This document shows, piece after piece, positions 1-5,030 of a stretch of DNA of 5,030 bases. Each line of letters begins with the position of its first letter. Position 1 is the stretch's first letter. The DNA is from a bacterium (GTDB taxonomy: Bacteria; UBA9089; CG2-30-40-21; SBAY01), in contig JBFLYA010000271.1 in assembly GCA_040757115.1 (NCBI GenBank), positions 1 to 5,030 on the forward strand, given 5' to 3'. A program made the translations under genes and the position numbers. Under the pieces are notes generated by a model. It was not told the DNA's origin, searched no databases, and saw only the letters and a list, made by a program, of their open reading frames with translations.

Positions 1-250
1 TCCTCCAAATGGTTCTAATGCTCCTGGAACTGTAGTCCAGTTCAGATGGAATCCTTCCCCCAGAGCAAATAATTATTGGTTACAGGTATCATTAGACAGC
101 GGATTTACTAAACTTGTGTTTGATAAAACTATTGGAAATTATATAGGAGTAAACATAACTGGCTTTCCGGATAATGGCACTCAGTACTGGTGGCGAGTGA
201 AGGCAGGTAATTCATTAGGCTGGAGTTCATGGTCTTCGGAATGGAACTTT
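1..250 (+). repeat. Near-identical 294-bp-offset duplicate of 295-544 (copies 1 and 2)
   Basis: Aligned by eye, bases 1-250 match 295-544 with three mismatches (at 128, 152 and 163); the first 127 bases are identical. Similarity drops after about base 250, where copy 1 has Thr-Asn-Gly and copy 2 has Ile-Asn-Gly followed by a different linker. The near identity at synonymous positions points to recent tandem duplication or gene conversion. Confidence 0.85.
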
Positions 251-3200
251 ACTAATGGACCAAGTAGCCCTCCTGATCCACCCACATTAAGCTCTCCTCC
301 AAATGGTTCTAATGCTCCTGGAACTGTAGTCCAGTTCAGATGGAATCCTTCCCCCAGAGCAAATAATTATTGGTTACAGGTATCATTAGACAGCGGATTT
401 ACTAAACTTGTGTTTGATAAAGCTATTGGAAATTATATAGGAGTAGACATAACTGGTTTTCCGGATAATGGCACTCAGTACTGGTGGCGAGTGAAGGCAG
501 GTAATTCATTAGGCTGGAGTTCATGGTCTTCGGAATGGAACTTTATCAATGGACCAAGCAGCATTCCTGATACACCAACTTTAGGCACTCCTACTAATGG
601 TTCTAACTTCCCTGGTACAAAGGTAGAATTCAGATGGCATGTAGCAGCAAGGGCTAATAACTACCATATTCAGGTATCACTTGATGGTAATTTTACTCAA
701 CTTATCTTTGATAAAGCAATAGGTAATTACATAGGAGTAGACATAACTGGCTTTCCGGATAATGGCACTCAGTACTGGTGGCGAGTGAAGGCAGGTAATA
801 CATTAGGCTGGAGTTCATGGTCTGAAGAATGGAATTTTATCAATGGACCAAGCAGCATACCTGATACACCTACTTTAGGCACTCCTACTAATGGCTCTAA
901 CTTCCCAGGTACAAAGGTAAAGTTCAGATGGCATGTAGCAGATAGGGCAAATAACTACCATATTCAGGTATCATTGGATAGTAATTTTACTCAACTTATC
1001 TTTGATGAGGCAATAGGTAATTACATAGGAGTAGACATAAGCGGGTTTCCAGACAATGGGACTCAGTACTGGTGGCGAGTGAAGGCAGGTAATTCATTAG
1101 GCTGGAGTTCATGGTCTTCGGAATGGAACTTTATCAATGGACCAAGCAGCATTCCTGATACACCTACTTTAGGCACTCCTACTAATGGTTCTAACTTCCC
1201 TGGCACAAAGGTAGAATTCAGATGGCATGTAGCAGCAAGGGCTAATAACTACCATATTCAGGTATCACTGGATAGTAATTTTACTCAACTTATCTTTGAT
1301 AAAGCAATAGGTAATTACATAGGAGTAGACATAACTGGCTTTCCAGATAATGGCACTCAGTACTGGTGGCGAGTGAAGGCAGGTAATACATTAGGCTGGA
1401 GTTCATGGTCTTCGGAATGGAACTTTATCAACGGACCAACTGATAAACCTGATACACCAGAGTTAATTCGACCAGAAGATGGAACTAATATACCTGGTAA
1501 TGTAGTTCAATTTCGCTGGTATCCTGCACCAAGGGCAAATAATTACCATCTACAAGTAGCATTAGACAACGGTTTTACCAAATTTGTATTTGATAAATCT
1601 ATTGGAAATTATATAGGGGTAGATATGTCTGGGTTCTTAGATGACGGCACTCAGTACTGGTGGCGTGTAAAGGCAGGGAATATACTTGGGACAAGCTCCT
1701 GGTCTGCGGAATGGAATTTTATTAATGGGCCGAGTAGCAAACCTGAAATACCAATATTGATCCAGCCAGAAGATGGAGTTAATGTCCCAGGTCAAGTGAT
1801 TCAATTTCGCTGGTATCCTGCACCCAGGGCAAATAATTACCATCTACAAGTAGCATTAGACAACGGTTTTACCAAATTTGTATTTGATAAAGCTATTGGA
1901 AATTATATAGGGGTAGATATGTCTGGGTTCTTAGATGATGGTACTCAATACTGGTGGCGTGTAAAGGCAGGGAATGTACTTGGTACAAGTTCATGGTCTT
2001 GTGAATGGAATTTTATTAATGGATTAAGTAATAAACCCAGTCCACCTACAGGTGTGATTGCAAAACCAGGTCCGGGTAGTGGACAGATTACTCTTATCTG
2101 GAATGCAAATCCGGAGCCTGAGTTAGATTATTATAGGATTTATTTAGGCACTTCATCTGGTAATTACTTTGGCTATTTTGATAAGGTACCCAAAGAGTGG
2201 CATACAGGAGTTATCATCTCTGGTCTTACAAATGGCACTACTTACTATATCGTAGTAACAGCAGTAAATATAAGTAGTGTTGAAAGTGATTATTCTGAAG
2301 AGGTAAGTGCTACTCCTGAAGAAATAGGTGATTCAGAACCTCCTACCATCCCGGGTAATTTAAACATTAATGATCCAGAAACAGGAGAGGAATTAGAATT
2401 ATCCTGGGATGCATCAACAGATAATGTTGAGGTATCACATTACTTGATTTATCGTCTGACAAATAATTCAGCAGTATCAGAAAGTAATTATGACTATGGC
2501 TTTCCAGTAAGTACTTCTAAAACTAATTATACAGATTATGAGGTAACAGAGGCAAATACATATTATTATAAAGTGTTGGCAGTGGATACCTCAGATAATC
2601 GAAGTGGGTTATCAAATTTAGCCGATGCCTCACCAACTGATACCCTTGCACCAGCCAAACCAACTAATGTAAATACAACTCCAGGAGATACAATCATAGA
2701 CCTGTGGTGGACTGCTCCAACAACTAATACAGATAACTCTGAGTTGACGGATTTAGCAGGATATAATATCTATCGTGGCACTTCTCATGGAAATTATAAC
2801 CCTGAACCAATAAATGGCTTGACATTGATTACCACATTATATTATAATGATACCGGGCTAATAAATGACCAGACATATTATTATATAGTCAAGGCAGTGG
2901 ATGATAGTGATAATGAAGGACCTGCATCAATAGAGGTATCTGAAACACCCGTGGGGACTGATACCCCACCTGCACCACCGTCAGATGTTATGATTACAGA
3001 AAAAGAAAATGAGTTGCTAATAACCTGGGCTCCAAATCATGAATTAGACTTAGCAGGATACAATATCTATCGAGGAACAGAAAGCGGCAATTACTCATCT
3101 ACTCCAATTAATTCATCAATTCTGACTACCGAGTCATATACTGATAGGGATGTAGTTGAAAATCAAACTTATTTTTATGTTGTAAGGGCAGTAGATGAGT

Positions 3201-4957
3201 TAGGACATGAAAGTGAAAATAGTGAAGAGGTATCTGGAATGATAGGAGAAGGGGTAATCTGGATTATTAAGCCTACTTCTTCTAATCCAGCAAGATTATG
3301 TTTTAATCAGGAACAGGTAACTACAAAGGGATTACCTACAACAAGTATTCAAGATAAAGAACAAGTTATTATAGAATATCATCTTAGCGAAGATTATTTG
3401 GATTTATATCCATTAAGCATCATTCGATTAGAGATAAAAAATTATTATACAGGTGAACTGGTGTATACTGCCTGGGATTATAAGCCTTTCCCTTCAATAA
3501 CCGATGACCCACATTTTATATGGAATGGTAGAAATAATGATGGTAAGGTAGTACCTAATGGACTATATACTACAACAATTTCTATTTACCTATTTAACAT
3601 TATCAAATGGTCTACTCAGGAGGGAAGAAACATTATTATTAGTACTAAGGTAAGATTAGGTGGGGCAATAAACGGTACTGCAGACCCGGGCTTTTTTGAG
3701 GTCTATGTGCCAACAAAATATGGCGGTGTATTAACTATCTCTGCACCAGGTTGTACAATAGAGATATTTGACCCGAAAGGTAATCCCTTTACTAATGGGA
3801 CAGAGGTTGGAGAAAATAACCATGGGTGGTTTACATTTAAAGTAAGCGGGTCGAAGAATTATACTGTTAGTAATACATTTGTTGAAAAAGGAGAAGCATC
3901 AACAAAACCTTGGAATGGATGGTATTGGCCTTTACTTGATTCAATAGACCCAAATCTTTATGATACAACAGGAGCATATACCCCGTTAAAAGACTATGAT
4001 TCTGTATACCCAGAAGGATGTCCTCGTGCTTTTTACACATCCGAGGCTATAAGTGGTATAAGAGTTTTTGAACCGGTAGAGAGTAATGTTGGAGTTTCCT
4101 CTTTAGAATGGAACAGCATGAAACGAGAGTTGCGTTGGAACAATGGAGCATGGATTGGTCCCTTCATACAAGGATTTTATATAGTCACTTTGCCGGGTAA
4201 TATTCTTAGTCCACTTAAGGTTGAGGTTACATGTAGTAGATTACCTAATATTGACAAGACTGTCAATGTAAAGACCGTTACAGATGGTAAACCTCGTGAT
4301 TGGGAGGCAGCCTACCATAGTGGCGGTCTTGGATGGGAAGGACATTGCTGGGGTTGGGCAATAGCAGCAATAGCTAAGTCTCAACCAGGGCCAACAACTA
4401 AAAATAAGATTTCTTTCAACCAAGATGAAATGGAAGGTTTATATACTGAGTTAGCAGATAGTGCTTCAGAATGGGGAGATTATGTAATAGGAGATTATCC
4501 AGATAATATTATTCCACATAGTGGTTCAGGTTTAGATGCCTGGCCGAAAATTGTTCATGAAGGTTTAAGAAAGTACCTTCGACAAGAGAAAATCCCTCTA
4601 AATTCTAATTTGAGAGGGACCTCAGATCCCGATGAGATATGGAACCATCCTGTATATAAATACGAATCAACTATGGAAGAAGCCACTGGTGGTGACGAGT
4701 TTAAGATAAAAATTACTACAAAGATAACTGCTGGTAAAGATTTTCCTGCTATGCCTCCAGATAATGCTAAGCGAGAGGAGGTATATATATACCAAGTTAA
4801 ATATAAGGAAAATGGTGAAATTGGAACTTCAGATCAAGATTGGATAAGTTGTTCTCATTATGCACCTAAGTGGTTTGGAAAGGTGAATAGTGAAGATGTT
4901 ATTAATTGGCATTCAAATGCAGGTATTACAAAAACTAAAGTGGATGCACTTTATTAA
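2..4957 (+). CDS. Giant multidomain FN3-repeat protein with FlgD-like and C-terminal transglutaminase-like Cys domain (5' partial)
   Basis: The frame is open from base 2 to TAA 4955-4957 (1651 residues visible). The true start, and any signal peptide, lie upstream. The GTG at 116 is an internal valine codon inside repeat 1, not a start. Order of parts: seven 98-residue FN3-like repeats (residues 1-678), four divergent FN3 domains (about 679-772, 777-878, 883-983, 988-1079), a FlgD-like Ig segment (about 1085-1217), a poorly recognised beta-rich region (about 1218-1431), and a terminal region (about 1432-1651) with Cys1449 in GHCWGW, His1519 and a WNHP motif at 1547-1550. FN3 and FlgD-like modules are typical of extracellular bacterial proteins. 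The inferred role is a surface or secreted stalk presenting a thiol enzyme domain that could process or crosslink protein. No LPXTG motif or C-terminal hydrophobic anchor is visible, so attachment, if any, is unknown. A co-directional gene follows after 16 bases. The coding call is near certain; the enzyme function is moderate to low. Confidence 0.95.
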   Translation, partial: PPNGSNAPGTVVQFRWNPSPRANNYWLQVSLDSGFTKLVFDKTIGNYIGVNITGFPDNGTQYWWRVKAGNSLGWSSWSSEWNFTNGPSSPPDPPTLSSPPNGSNAPGTVVQFRWNPSPRANNYWLQVSLDSGFTKLVFDKAIGNYIGVDITGFPDNGTQYWWRVKAGNSLGWSSWSSEWNFINGPSSIPDTPTLGTPTNGSNFPGTKVEFRWHVAARANNYHIQVSLDGNFTQLIFDKAIGNYIGVDITGFPDNGTQYWWRVKAGNTLGWSSWSEEWNFINGPSSIPDTPTLGTPTNGSNFPGTKVKFRWHVADRANNYHIQVSLDSNFTQLIFDEAIGNYIGVDISGFPDNGTQYWWRVKAGNSLGWSSWSSEWNFINGPSSIPDTPTLGTPTNGSNFPGTKVEFRWHVAARANNYHIQVSLDSNFTQLIFDKAIGNYIGVDITGFPDNGTQYWWRVKAGNTLGWSSWSSEWNFINGPTDKPDTPELIRPEDGTNIPGNVVQFRWYPAPRANNYHLQVALDNGFTKFVFDKSIGNYIGVDMSGFLDDGTQYWWRVKAGNILGTSSWSAEWNFINGPSSKPEIPILIQPEDGVNVPGQVIQFRWYPAPRANNYHLQVALDNGFTKFVFDKAIGNYIGVDMSGFLDDGTQYWWRVKAGNVLGTSSWSCEWNFINGLSNKPSPPTGVIAKPGPGSGQITLIWNANPEPELDYYRIYLGTSSGNYFGYFDKVPKEWHTGVIISGLTNGTTYYIVVTAVNISSVESDYSEEVSATPEEIGDSEPPTIPGNLNINDPETGEELELSWDASTDNVEVSHYLIYRLTNNSAVSESNYDYGFPVSTSKTNYTDYEVTEANTYYYKVLAVDTSDNRSGLSNLADASPTDTLAPAKPTNVNTTPGDTIIDLWWTAPTTNTDNSELTDLAGYNIYRGTSHGNYNPEPINGLTLITTLYYNDTGLINDQTYYYIVKAVDDSDNEGPASIEVSETPVGTDTPPAPPSDVMITEKENELLITWAPNHELDLAGYNIYRGTESGNYSSTPINSSILTTESYTDRDVVENQTYFYVVRAVDELGHESENSEEVSGMIGEGVIWIIKPTSSNPARLCFNQEQVTTKGLPTTSIQDKEQVIIEYHLSEDYLDLYPLSIIRLEIKNYYTGELVYTAWDYKPFPSITDDPHFIWNGRNNDGKVVPNGLYTTTISIYLFNIIKWSTQEGRNIIISTKVRLGGAINGTADPGFFEVYVPTKYGGVLTISAPGCTIEIFDPKGNPFTNGTEVGENNHGWFTFKVSGSKNYTVSNTFVEKGEASTKPWNGWYWPLLDSIDPNLYDTTGAYTPLKDYDSVYPEGCPRAFYTSEAISGIRVFEPVESNVGVSSLEWNSMKRELRWNNGAWIGPFIQGFYIVTLPGNILSPLKVEVTCSRLPNIDKTVNVKTVTDGKPRDWEAAYHSGGLGWEGHCWGWAIAAIAKSQPGPTTKNKISFNQDEMEGLYTELADSASEWGDYVIGDYPDNIIPHSGSGLDAWPKIVHEGLRKYLRQEKIPLNSNLRGTSDPDEIWNHPVYKYESTMEEATGGDEFKIKITTKITAGKDFPAMPPDNAKREEVYIYQVKYKENGEIGTSDQDWISCSHYAPKWFGKVNSEDVINWHSNAGITKTKVDALY
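473..823 (+). repeat. Two-unit (588-bp) offset duplicate, left member (partner 1061-1411)
   Basis: This block spans the second half of repeat copy 2 and most of copy 3. It matches 1061-1411 (second half of copy 4 plus most of copy 5) with about five mismatches in 351 bp by eye, the first at 577. Copy 4, lying between, is clearly more different. Copies 3 and 5 are therefore sisters at an offset of two units. Confidence 0.8.
1061..1411 (+). repeat. Two-unit (588-bp) offset duplicate, right member (partner 473-823)
   Basis: This is the partner of the left block. Both members end their high identity at the codons after GGAGTTCATGGTCT, where copy 3 reads GAAGAA and copy 5 reads TCGGAA. The shared linker encodes the PSSIPDTPTLGTPTNGS-type segment, which is absent from copies 1, 6 and 7. 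Confidence 0.8.
2036..3238 (+). other. Four divergent classical FN3 domains (protein region)
   Basis: Bases 2036-2317, 2330-2635, 2648-2950 and 2963-3238 each encode about 92-102 residues with the classical FN3 signature. This comprises an initial Pro-rich linker (PSPPTGV, EPPTIPGNL, PAKPTNV, PPAPPSDV), a B-strand Trp (LIWNA, LSWDA, LWWTAP, ITWAP), a C-strand Tyr-x-Ile-Tyr (YYRIYLGT, YLIYR, YNIYRGT, YNIYRGT) and an F-strand TYYYxVxAVD-type motif. The last two share DLAGYNIYRGT, xGNY and PIN motifs, so they look like an older internal duplication. Unlike the upstream array they are not similar at DNA level. Expected role: an extracellular spacer between the repeat rod and the C-terminal domains. 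The domain family is confident; any ligand is unknown. Confidence 0.88.
3254..3652 (+). other. FlgD-like Ig domain region (protein region)
   Basis: Residues about 1085-1217. The key signature is WNGRNNDGKVVPNGLY at 3521-3568, which matches the W-x-G-[RK]-[ND]-[ND]-x-G-x-x-[VL]-[PA]-x-G-x-Y turn of FlgD_ig-type domains. It is preceded by IIRLEIKNYYTGELVYT, the expected strand and turn upstream of that motif, and followed by a TTTISIYLFN strand. In flagellar hook-cap FlgD and in many exported bacterial proteins this module is a structural Ig-like fold; nothing here suggests a flagellar role. The exact domain limits are approximate. Confidence 0.7.
3653..4294 (+). other. Unrecognised beta-rich region with Trp-rich KPWNGWYWP motif (protein region)
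   Basis: Residues about 1218-1431. The first part (GFFEVYVPTKYGGVLTIS, IEIFDPKGNPF, WFTFKVSG) reads as a beta-sandwich-like domain. A Trp-rich motif follows at 3905-3931 (residues 1302-1310, KPWNGWYWP), then LYDTTGAYTPLKDYD. Sequences of the form PW-x-x-x-YWP followed by an Asn/Tyr-Asp stretch precede the catalytic core in transglutaminase-elicitor-like proteins, so this may be the propeptide or N-lobe of the terminal domain. That link is from memory of the family and is not proven by this sequence. Three Cys codons occur here (GCTIE, EGCPR, VTCSR). Confidence 0.4.
4295..4954 (+). other. Candidate transglutaminase-elicitor-like / papain-fold thiol enzyme domain (protein region)
   Basis: Residues about 1432-1651, ending the protein. 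Visible motifs in order: RDWEAAYHSGGLGWEGHCWGWA with candidate nucleophile Cys1449 (codon 4346-4348) at the start of an Ala-rich helix (AIAAIAKS); ISFNQDEMEGLYTEL; WPKIVHEGLRKYL with candidate His1519 (4556-4558); SDPDEIWNHPVYKYE with Asp1544 and Asn1548 (4643-4645); VYIYQVKY; and DWISCSHYAPKWF. The W-x-G-x-C-x-G-W-A motif, a following F-x-x-[DE]-[ED]-[ML]-x-x-L, a later His, a [VI]WN-x-P motif and a final W...P-x-[FW] element parallel the TGase_elicitor family known from oomycete GP42-type and bacterial proteins. The reaction would be thiol-acyl chemistry: protein crosslinking, deamidation or proteolysis. Another papain-fold peptidase is the main alternative. Homology is inferred from motif order, not from a search. 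Confidence 0.5.
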
Positions 4958-4965
4958 AGGAGGTG
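4956..4965 (+). promoter_or_regulatory. Strong Shine-Dalgarno (AAAGGAGGTG) for the downstream gene
   Basis: AAAGGAGGTG is an extended match to the anti-Shine-Dalgarno end of bacterial 16S rRNA. Its first two A bases are the last two of the upstream TAA stop (4955-4957). The GGAGG core (4959-4963) ends ten bases before ATG 4974. The overlap means ribosomes finishing the long gene stop on top of the next gene's binding site, which favours translational coupling. It also makes ATG 4974 the clear start. Confidence 0.88.
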
Positions 4966-4973
4966 TGAATCTT

Positions 4974-5030
4974 ATGTGGATATTAAAATTAAAAGGAAGG
5001 AGGTTCATTTTAGCTTTACTTACTGTGTCC
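4974..5030 (+). CDS. Start of a second gene, probable exported or membrane protein (3' partial)
   Basis: ATG 4974 opens a frame that reaches the window edge: MWILKLKGRRFILALLTVS, 19 residues. A basic n-region (KLKGRR) followed by a hydrophobic run (FILALLTVS) is what a Sec signal peptide or an N-terminal membrane anchor looks like. The hydrophobic core is cut by the edge, so a cleavage site or lipobox cannot be judged. It lies 16 bases after the stop of the long gene on the same strand, with no room for a terminator or a typical promoter between them, so the two are probably one operon. An in-frame GTG at 4965 is rejected as start because it sits within or against the Shine-Dalgarno. Function is not recognisable. 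Confidence 0.75.
   Translation, partial: MWILKLKGRRFILALLTVS

What the first reader, a model, noticed from the sequence alone, without database searches (positions are those of the whole stretch)
4295..4954. Candidate Cys-His-Asn/Asp enzyme domain at the tip of a giant FN3 stalk
Seen: GHCWGWA (Cys1449), His1519 in WPKIVHEGL, and DEIWNHPVYKYE (Asp1544, Asn1548), in the order expected for a papain/transglutaminase fold. Known: TGase_elicitor-type proteins carry a W-x-G-x-C-x-G-W-A nucleophile motif and a later VWNQP-like motif. Inference: this is a surface-displayed transglutaminase or cysteine peptidase, with the upstream KPWNGWYWP region as its N-lobe or propeptide. The combination with at least eleven FN3 domains and a FlgD-like Ig is an unusual architecture. 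If right, it is a candidate extracellular crosslinking or adhesion enzyme.
Basis: partly seen in the sequence, partly recalled or inferred. Interest (0 to 1): 0.65.

Follow-up and report, generated by a model that had tools for sequence, protein, structure and literature searches.

The report
Exchangeable transglutaminase-like tip on stalk protein
The end of a long secreted stalk protein carries a distant relative of the Phytophthora GP42 transglutaminase, and two sister species with nearly identical stalks carry different versions of it together with a different neighbouring gene, which looks like an exchangeable weapon or adhesion module.

Summary
The C-terminal domain is a divergent sister branch of TGase_elicitor (PF16683, GP42-type transglutaminases). 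A three-sequence profile finds one PDB protein, GP42 (3tw5), at E 1.7e-6. A reverse profile from 33 PF16683 domains finds all four branch members at E 2.5e-11 to 5.8e-5. Pfam's cut-off is missed (20.2 of 25 bits). Cys1449 and Asn1548 are invariant. Asp1544 is not conserved. His1519 is usually conserved but is Gln in one relative. A His beside the Cys is conserved in 37 of 38 sequences: "HC" here, "CH" in GP42. AlphaFold failed, so geometry is untested.

A congener has a 92.8% identical stalk, but similarity stops within a codon of PWNGWYWP and resumes about 3.2 kb downstream at 96.7%. Between the breaks the enzyme tips are 44% identical and the adjacent exported "KPWW" proteins 24%. The window's tip groups with a 60%-GC bacterium rather than its congener (AU p 0.017-0.040). 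All four branch members have a KPWW gene directly downstream. This is an exchanged cassette resembling polymorphic toxin/immunity loci. Toxicity, immunity and catalysis are inferred, not shown.

The parts
2..2030 (+). Seven tandem 98-aa Ig/FN3-fold repeats (294-bp unit), distal stalk; 5' end cut by the contig edge
   Evidence: TRF period 294, 6.9 copies; Ig_Rha78A_N E 1.3e-21; seven QYWWRVKAGN motifs
2039..3250 (+). Four FN3 domains
   Evidence: Pfam fn3 E 2.6e-16; four FN3 tail motifs
3254..3643 (+). FlgD-like Ig region
   Evidence: FlgD_ig E 8.4e-4 here and 1.1e-4 in G001, both below cut-off
3644..3907 (+). Presumed beta-sandwich pre-domain, conserved with the enzyme in all four homologs
   Evidence: alignments A1 and A8; profile found only in G000, G001, G104 plus one marginal hit. 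Fold is a guess
3908..4954 (+). GP42-like transglutaminase domain (PWNGWYWP to C-terminus), divergent sister branch of PF16683
   Evidence: 3tw5 E 1.7e-6, reverse HMM, hhalign 98%, Pfam E 2.8e-4 below cut-off
3930..3932 (.). Left end of the exchanged cassette: DNA identity to G001 falls from 92.8% to background
   Evidence: blastn and base-by-base comparison
4010..4276 (+). Insert of about 90 aa between the PWNGWYWP segment and the Cys motif, only in the window's tip (ends approximate)
   Evidence: alignments
4343..4348 (+). His1448-Cys1449: nucleophile with adjacent His ('HC' type)
   Evidence: Cys invariant in 37 aligned sequences; His directly before or after it in 37 of 38
4427..4429 (+). 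Glu1476, acidic in every sequence aligned (D/E)
4556..4558 (+).
4640..4648 (+). Trp1547-Asn1548-His1549 (WNH), the position of Pep-13 VWNQP in GP42; WN in 37 of 37
4956..4964 (+). Ribosome-binding site (AAAGGAGGT) of the partner gene
   Evidence: sequence
4974..5030 (+). Start of the KPWW partner gene, an exported protein of 280 aa; continues in contig C79 (L008 71-913)
   Evidence: 127-nt overlap of C271 and C79; homologs directly downstream in all four loci

Best explanation
Shown: the protein's C-terminal about 350 aa is a divergent member of the GP42-like transglutaminase superfamily, sister to Pfam TGase_elicitor, at the end of a long Ig/FN3 stalk. It lies directly upstream of an exported partner gene ('KPWW'). 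Enzyme tip and partner form a cassette that differs from that of a congener whose stalk and downstream flank are nearly identical. Inferred: the protein leaves the cytoplasm by a Sec signal peptide and the stalk holds the enzyme away from the cell. There Cys1449, at the start of a helix, forms a thioester with a glutamine of a target protein, helped by His1448 next to it and by Asn1548 and Glu1476, and passes the acyl group to an amine or to water (cross-linking or deamidation). Inferred: KPWW acts outside the cytoplasm on the same enzyme, most simply as its inhibitor or immunity protein, so tip and partner must be exchanged together.
For: Family: the three-sequence profile finds 3tw5 (GP42) alone in the PDB, E 1.7e-6, from PWNGWYWP to WNH. 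Two separate members hit only PF16683, E about 3e-4. The profile finds true PF16683 proteins in other genomes. The reverse HMM finds all four members, E 2.5e-11 to 5.8e-5, with no reversed decoy listed. hhalign gives 98%. The four form one clade, 100/100, outside the sampled PF16683. Active site; for GP42, PMC10318531. Cassette: 92.8% DNA identity up to window 3930, resuming at 96.7%, with sharp ends. Tips 43.9%, partners 23.7% identical. The window's tip groups with L003 (bootstrap 98); the vertical topology is rejected by AU, p 0.017-0.040 under four models. Partner adjacent in 4 of 4 loci; strong hits nowhere else in 386 genomes. Probable N-terminus with signal peptide on G001 contig C67.
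Against: Pfam's cut-off is not met. The disulfide cysteines and the GGEW and HPDFxW motifs of PF16683 are missing. No usable structure model. Only two congeners show the exchange, both draft assemblies; the N-terminus is not on the same contig; no outer-membrane exporter was identified. KPWW-like domains occur weakly in three genomes, in the two of these that could be tested without a TGase hit of this branch. Both known tips are of the same enzyme family, unlike the classic swap between unrelated toxins.
Confidence: 0.6

Rival explanations
1. Surface cross-linking or adhesion enzyme: the tip joins the cell to a matrix, host or neighbouring cell, and KPWW is a substrate or accessory protein. 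The tips differ because the surface targets, or phages and grazers, differ.
For: Long Ig/FN3 stalk; GP42 is a secreted transglutaminase; G104 carries the same tip on a short secreted protein without FN3 repeats; KPWW-like domains also sit in other exported proteins (L035).
Against: Simultaneous exchange of tip and partner within sharp borders and a partner more divergent than the enzyme fit an antagonist/protector pair better. No anchor or sorting signal was seen.
Confidence: 0.3
2. Dead or purely binding domain: a transglutaminase-fold module without catalysis, used for binding, like the inactive transglutaminase domains described in polymorphic toxins.
For: Inactive transglutaminases are known in such proteins (PMC3482391); the Asp of HPDFxW and other PF16683 positions are lost.
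Against: Cys, a flanking His, Asn1548 and the helix acid are kept in all four members despite 40-51% identity. The inactive domains described are N-terminal and have lost catalytic residues.
Confidence: 0.12
3. Assembly chimera: the two genomes differ because one contig joins a stalk to an unrelated tip.
For: Repetitive stalk; G000 is split exactly inside the cassette, between C271 and C79.
Against: The breakpoint lies inside single contigs in both genomes, the frame and domain order are kept, and exact matches at the junction are short. The same pre-domain/tip/KPWW order occurs in two unrelated genomes (L003, G104).
Confidence: 0.05
4. Cysteine peptidase of another papain-like family (C1, C39) rather than a GP42 relative.
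For: A papain-like fold is shared by the whole superfamily.
Against: No other thiol-enzyme family matched in Pfam, NCBIfam or the PDB; co-linear motifs with GP42 over the domain.
Confidence: 0.05

Closest known systems
Phytophthora sojae GP42 transglutaminase / Pfam PF16683 TGase_elicitor (PDB 3tw5)
   Same: PW.G.YWP start, W.G.C nucleophile with adjacent His, F...[DE] helix, WN motif at the Pep-13 site, same order
   Different: His before the Cys rather than after it, Trp after the Cys, WNH instead of WNQ, disulfide pair and GGEW/HPDFxW motifs missing, below the Pfam cut-off, on an Ig/FN3 stalk, with a KPWW partner
'HCN'-type bacterial PF16683 proteins (e.g. L027, L028, L041)
   Same: GHC motif with His before Cys, WN motif
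   Different: Asn instead of Trp after Cys; disulfide pair mostly present; no KPWW hit in G206, G234 or G363
Polymorphic toxin systems (Zhang et al. 2012, PMC3482391), including Tox-TGase tips
   Same: Constant stalk, variable C-terminal enzyme, downstream partner that varies with it; transglutaminase folds are known toxin domains
   Different: Ig/FN3 stalk rather than RHS or filamentous repeats, a different transglutaminase family, both known tips from one family, toxicity and immunity untested

Membership tests
Pfam PF16683 TGase_elicitor | Score above curated cut-off (25 bits) | tested here: not met
   20.2 bits (window) and 20.3 (L003); no hit listed for G001 or G104
Pfam PF16683 TGase_elicitor | Profile-level homology over the catalytic core | tested here: met
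Pfam PF16683 TGase_elicitor | W.G.C nucleophile with a His directly beside the Cys | tested here: met
   WEGHCW, 4 of 4; 33 of 34 PF16683 sequences examined
Pfam PF16683 TGase_elicitor | WN motif (Pep-13 position) and F...[DE] helix motif | tested here: met
   37 of 37
Pfam PF16683 TGase_elicitor | Conserved GGRC...C cysteine pair and GGEW...HPDFxW | tested here: not met
   absent in all four; only W1614 and W1636 remain. Hence filed as a sister branch, not a member
Pfam PF16683 TGase_elicitor | Transglutaminase activity | not testable with these tools
   needs an assay
Pfam PF16683 TGase_elicitor | Papain-like active-site geometry | tested here: inconclusive
   AlphaFold with two sequences gave pLDDT 30 and 31
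Polymorphic toxin system | Constant N-terminal part with variable C-terminal domain | tested here: met
   sharp break, two congeners
Polymorphic toxin system | Partner gene directly downstream that changes with the tip | tested here: met
   4 of 4 loci adjacent, 15-30% identity between genomes
Polymorphic toxin system | Swap between unrelated toxin domains | tested here: not met
   both tips are the same family; no further congeners held
Polymorphic toxin system | Export signal | tested here: inconclusive
   signal peptide on probable N-terminal contig of G001; the window itself is cut
Polymorphic toxin system | Toxicity relieved by the partner | not testable with these tools
   needs an experiment

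The most novel reading that the evidence does not exclude
A Sec-exported polymorphic toxin class in which a GP42-type transglutaminase sits on an Ig/FN3 stalk and is exchanged as a cassette together with an exported cognate immunity protein (KPWW).
Probability: 0.35. Interest if true: 0.7.

Novelty: new variant of a known kind. Interest (0 to 1): 0.55.

Why it matters
It extends the GP42 transglutaminase family, known chiefly as an oomycete elicitor with marine Vibrio relatives, into uncultured bacterial phyla with an altered active site. It also points to a compact two-gene module that can be tested directly: does the tip cross-link or deamidate, and does the KPWW protein specifically block its own tip? 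The HC/CH split around the nucleophile is a natural experiment on how this active site works.

Tried and rejected
AlphaFold on the window domain (collected in 48) and on the shorter L003 domain (collected in 59), each with a two-row alignment, gave pLDDT 30 and 31. No fold search was made on them. No relatives were found in viral contigs, plasmids or phages. PHROGs and PADLOC gave nothing useful for tip or partner. KPWW has no convincing Pfam match and no PDB match. A cucumene synthase match to the single sequence (E 0.64) is chance. The stalk-end profile found no third genome with the long stalk. I first took His1519 to be merely unconserved; the joint alignment showed it matches a near-invariant PF16683 His, so it is rated doubtful rather than excluded. 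One C175 hit in G001 (L025) is a cyclase-like protein and was dropped.

Full report
Observation. The window is one whole contig (C271) of a 4.3-Mb, 462-contig draft genome assembly, apparently a MAG. It holds a 5'-open reading frame of 1651 aa at 2..4957. The stalk has seven 294-bp repeats, four FN3 domains and a FlgD-like Ig, so 'at least eleven' holds.

What the domain is. Alone, the last 435 aa give a single Pfam hit, TGase_elicitor, E 2.8e-4 and below its cut-off. Three relatives were found: G001 (same genus), L003 (an unclassified bacterial MAG, 60% GC) and G104 (another phylum). A profile of the first three sequences finds one PDB entry, GP42 transglutaminase 3tw5, at E 1.7e-6, co-linear from PWNGWYWP to WNH. 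The same profile finds true PF16683 proteins in other genomes. A reverse HMM built from 33 PF16683 domains finds all four at E 2.5e-11 to 5.8e-5, while their reversed sequences are not listed. hhalign gives 98%. The four form one clade with 100/100 support apart from the PF16683 proteins sampled. Because the Pfam cut-off and several PF16683 motifs are not met, it is filed as a sister branch, not as a member.

Active site. In the joint alignment of 37 sequences Cys1449, Trp1445, Gly1447, Trp1547 and Asn1548 are invariant and position 1476 is always acidic. GP42 is described as having its His right after the Cys (PMC10318531). Among 33 PF16683 domains 12 have CH and 21 have HCN; the four here have HCW. 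One borderline PF16683 protein, L029, has neither (SCD) and was left out of the alignment, so the flanking His is present in 37 of 38. PF16683 sequences were picked as the best-scoring loci and mostly come from one phylum. Asp1544 is not conserved. His1519 matches a His present in 32 of 33 PF16683 domains but is Gln in L003. Geometry is untested: both structure predictions failed.

The cassette. Window nt 107-3930 matches G001 contig C39 at 92.8%. The match ends within a codon of the last residue of PWNGWYWP. It resumes at L008 2146 / L009 5561 at 96.7%, at the ribosome-binding site of the next gene. Between these points lie, in G000, the tip, KPWW and an extra 393-aa ORF (about 3.2 kb); in G001, the tip and KPWW only (about 1.6 kb). 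In the C-terminal part used for the trees, from 20 residues before the Cys motif, the tips are 43.9% identical, although the stalks are about 94% identical in protein. The window's tip is closer to L003 (50.9%) than to its congener. A four-taxon tree puts window with L003 and G001 with G104, 97.1/98. The AU test rejects the vertical topology at p 0.017-0.040 under four models, most weakly under the mixture model, where the other tests do not reject it. The sharp DNA breakpoint is the stronger evidence.

The partner. An exported protein ending in a KPWW-like motif lies directly downstream of the tip in all four loci; L003 has two tandem copies, 55% identical. Between genomes it is 15-30% identical, more divergent than the tips. 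A profile search of 386 genomes finds strong hits only next to these tips, and weak ones in three other genomes, one of them as the end of a 589-aa exported protein. It has no convincing Pfam match and no PDB match. Its own tree shows the same split as the tips but with weak support (57/58).

Export. On G001 contig C67 the same repeats begin directly after a signal peptide. This is probably the N-terminus of the stalk; that copy runs into a stop near the contig end, so the link is inferred.

Reading. The most likely function is thiol acyl transfer on a target protein outside the cell, with the tip and its partner exchanged together. Whether this is a toxin/immunity pair (about 0.35) or an adhesion or cross-linking device (about 0.3) cannot be decided from sequence.

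Noticed in passing
window 4904-5030 / L008 1-127: Contigs C271 and C79 overlap by exactly 127 bases, so the assembly graph breaks inside the cassette, perhaps from strain variation there.
   Followed up: partly
window about 4010-4276: An insert of about 90 aa between PWNGWYWP and the Cys motif occurs only in the window's tip.
   Followed up: partly
L008 945-2126: A 393-aa ORF (possible lipoprotein) without Pfam match is present in the G000 cassette and absent from that of G001.
   Followed up: partly
L008 2165-3079 versus L009 5579-6496: The gene after the cassette is split by an apparent frameshift in G000 but intact (305 aa) in G001.
   Followed up: no
genomes in the phylum of G363: PF16683 is strongly expanded: 52 of 58 genomes have it, up to 12 matches each, with two active-site types, HCN and CH.
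   Followed up: partly
L035 (G373), L037 (G244), L036 (G327): Weak KPWW-like domains in exported proteins; no TGase hit of this branch in G373 and G244.
   Followed up: partly
L029 / L018 (G282, G146): Divergent PF16683-like proteins of about 800 aa with SCD in place of HC or CH, fused to an unrelated N-terminal region.
   Followed up: no
L084 5685-6212 (G001 contig C67): The probable N-terminal fragment of the stalk meets a stop codon soon after the second repeat, near the contig end.
   Followed up: no
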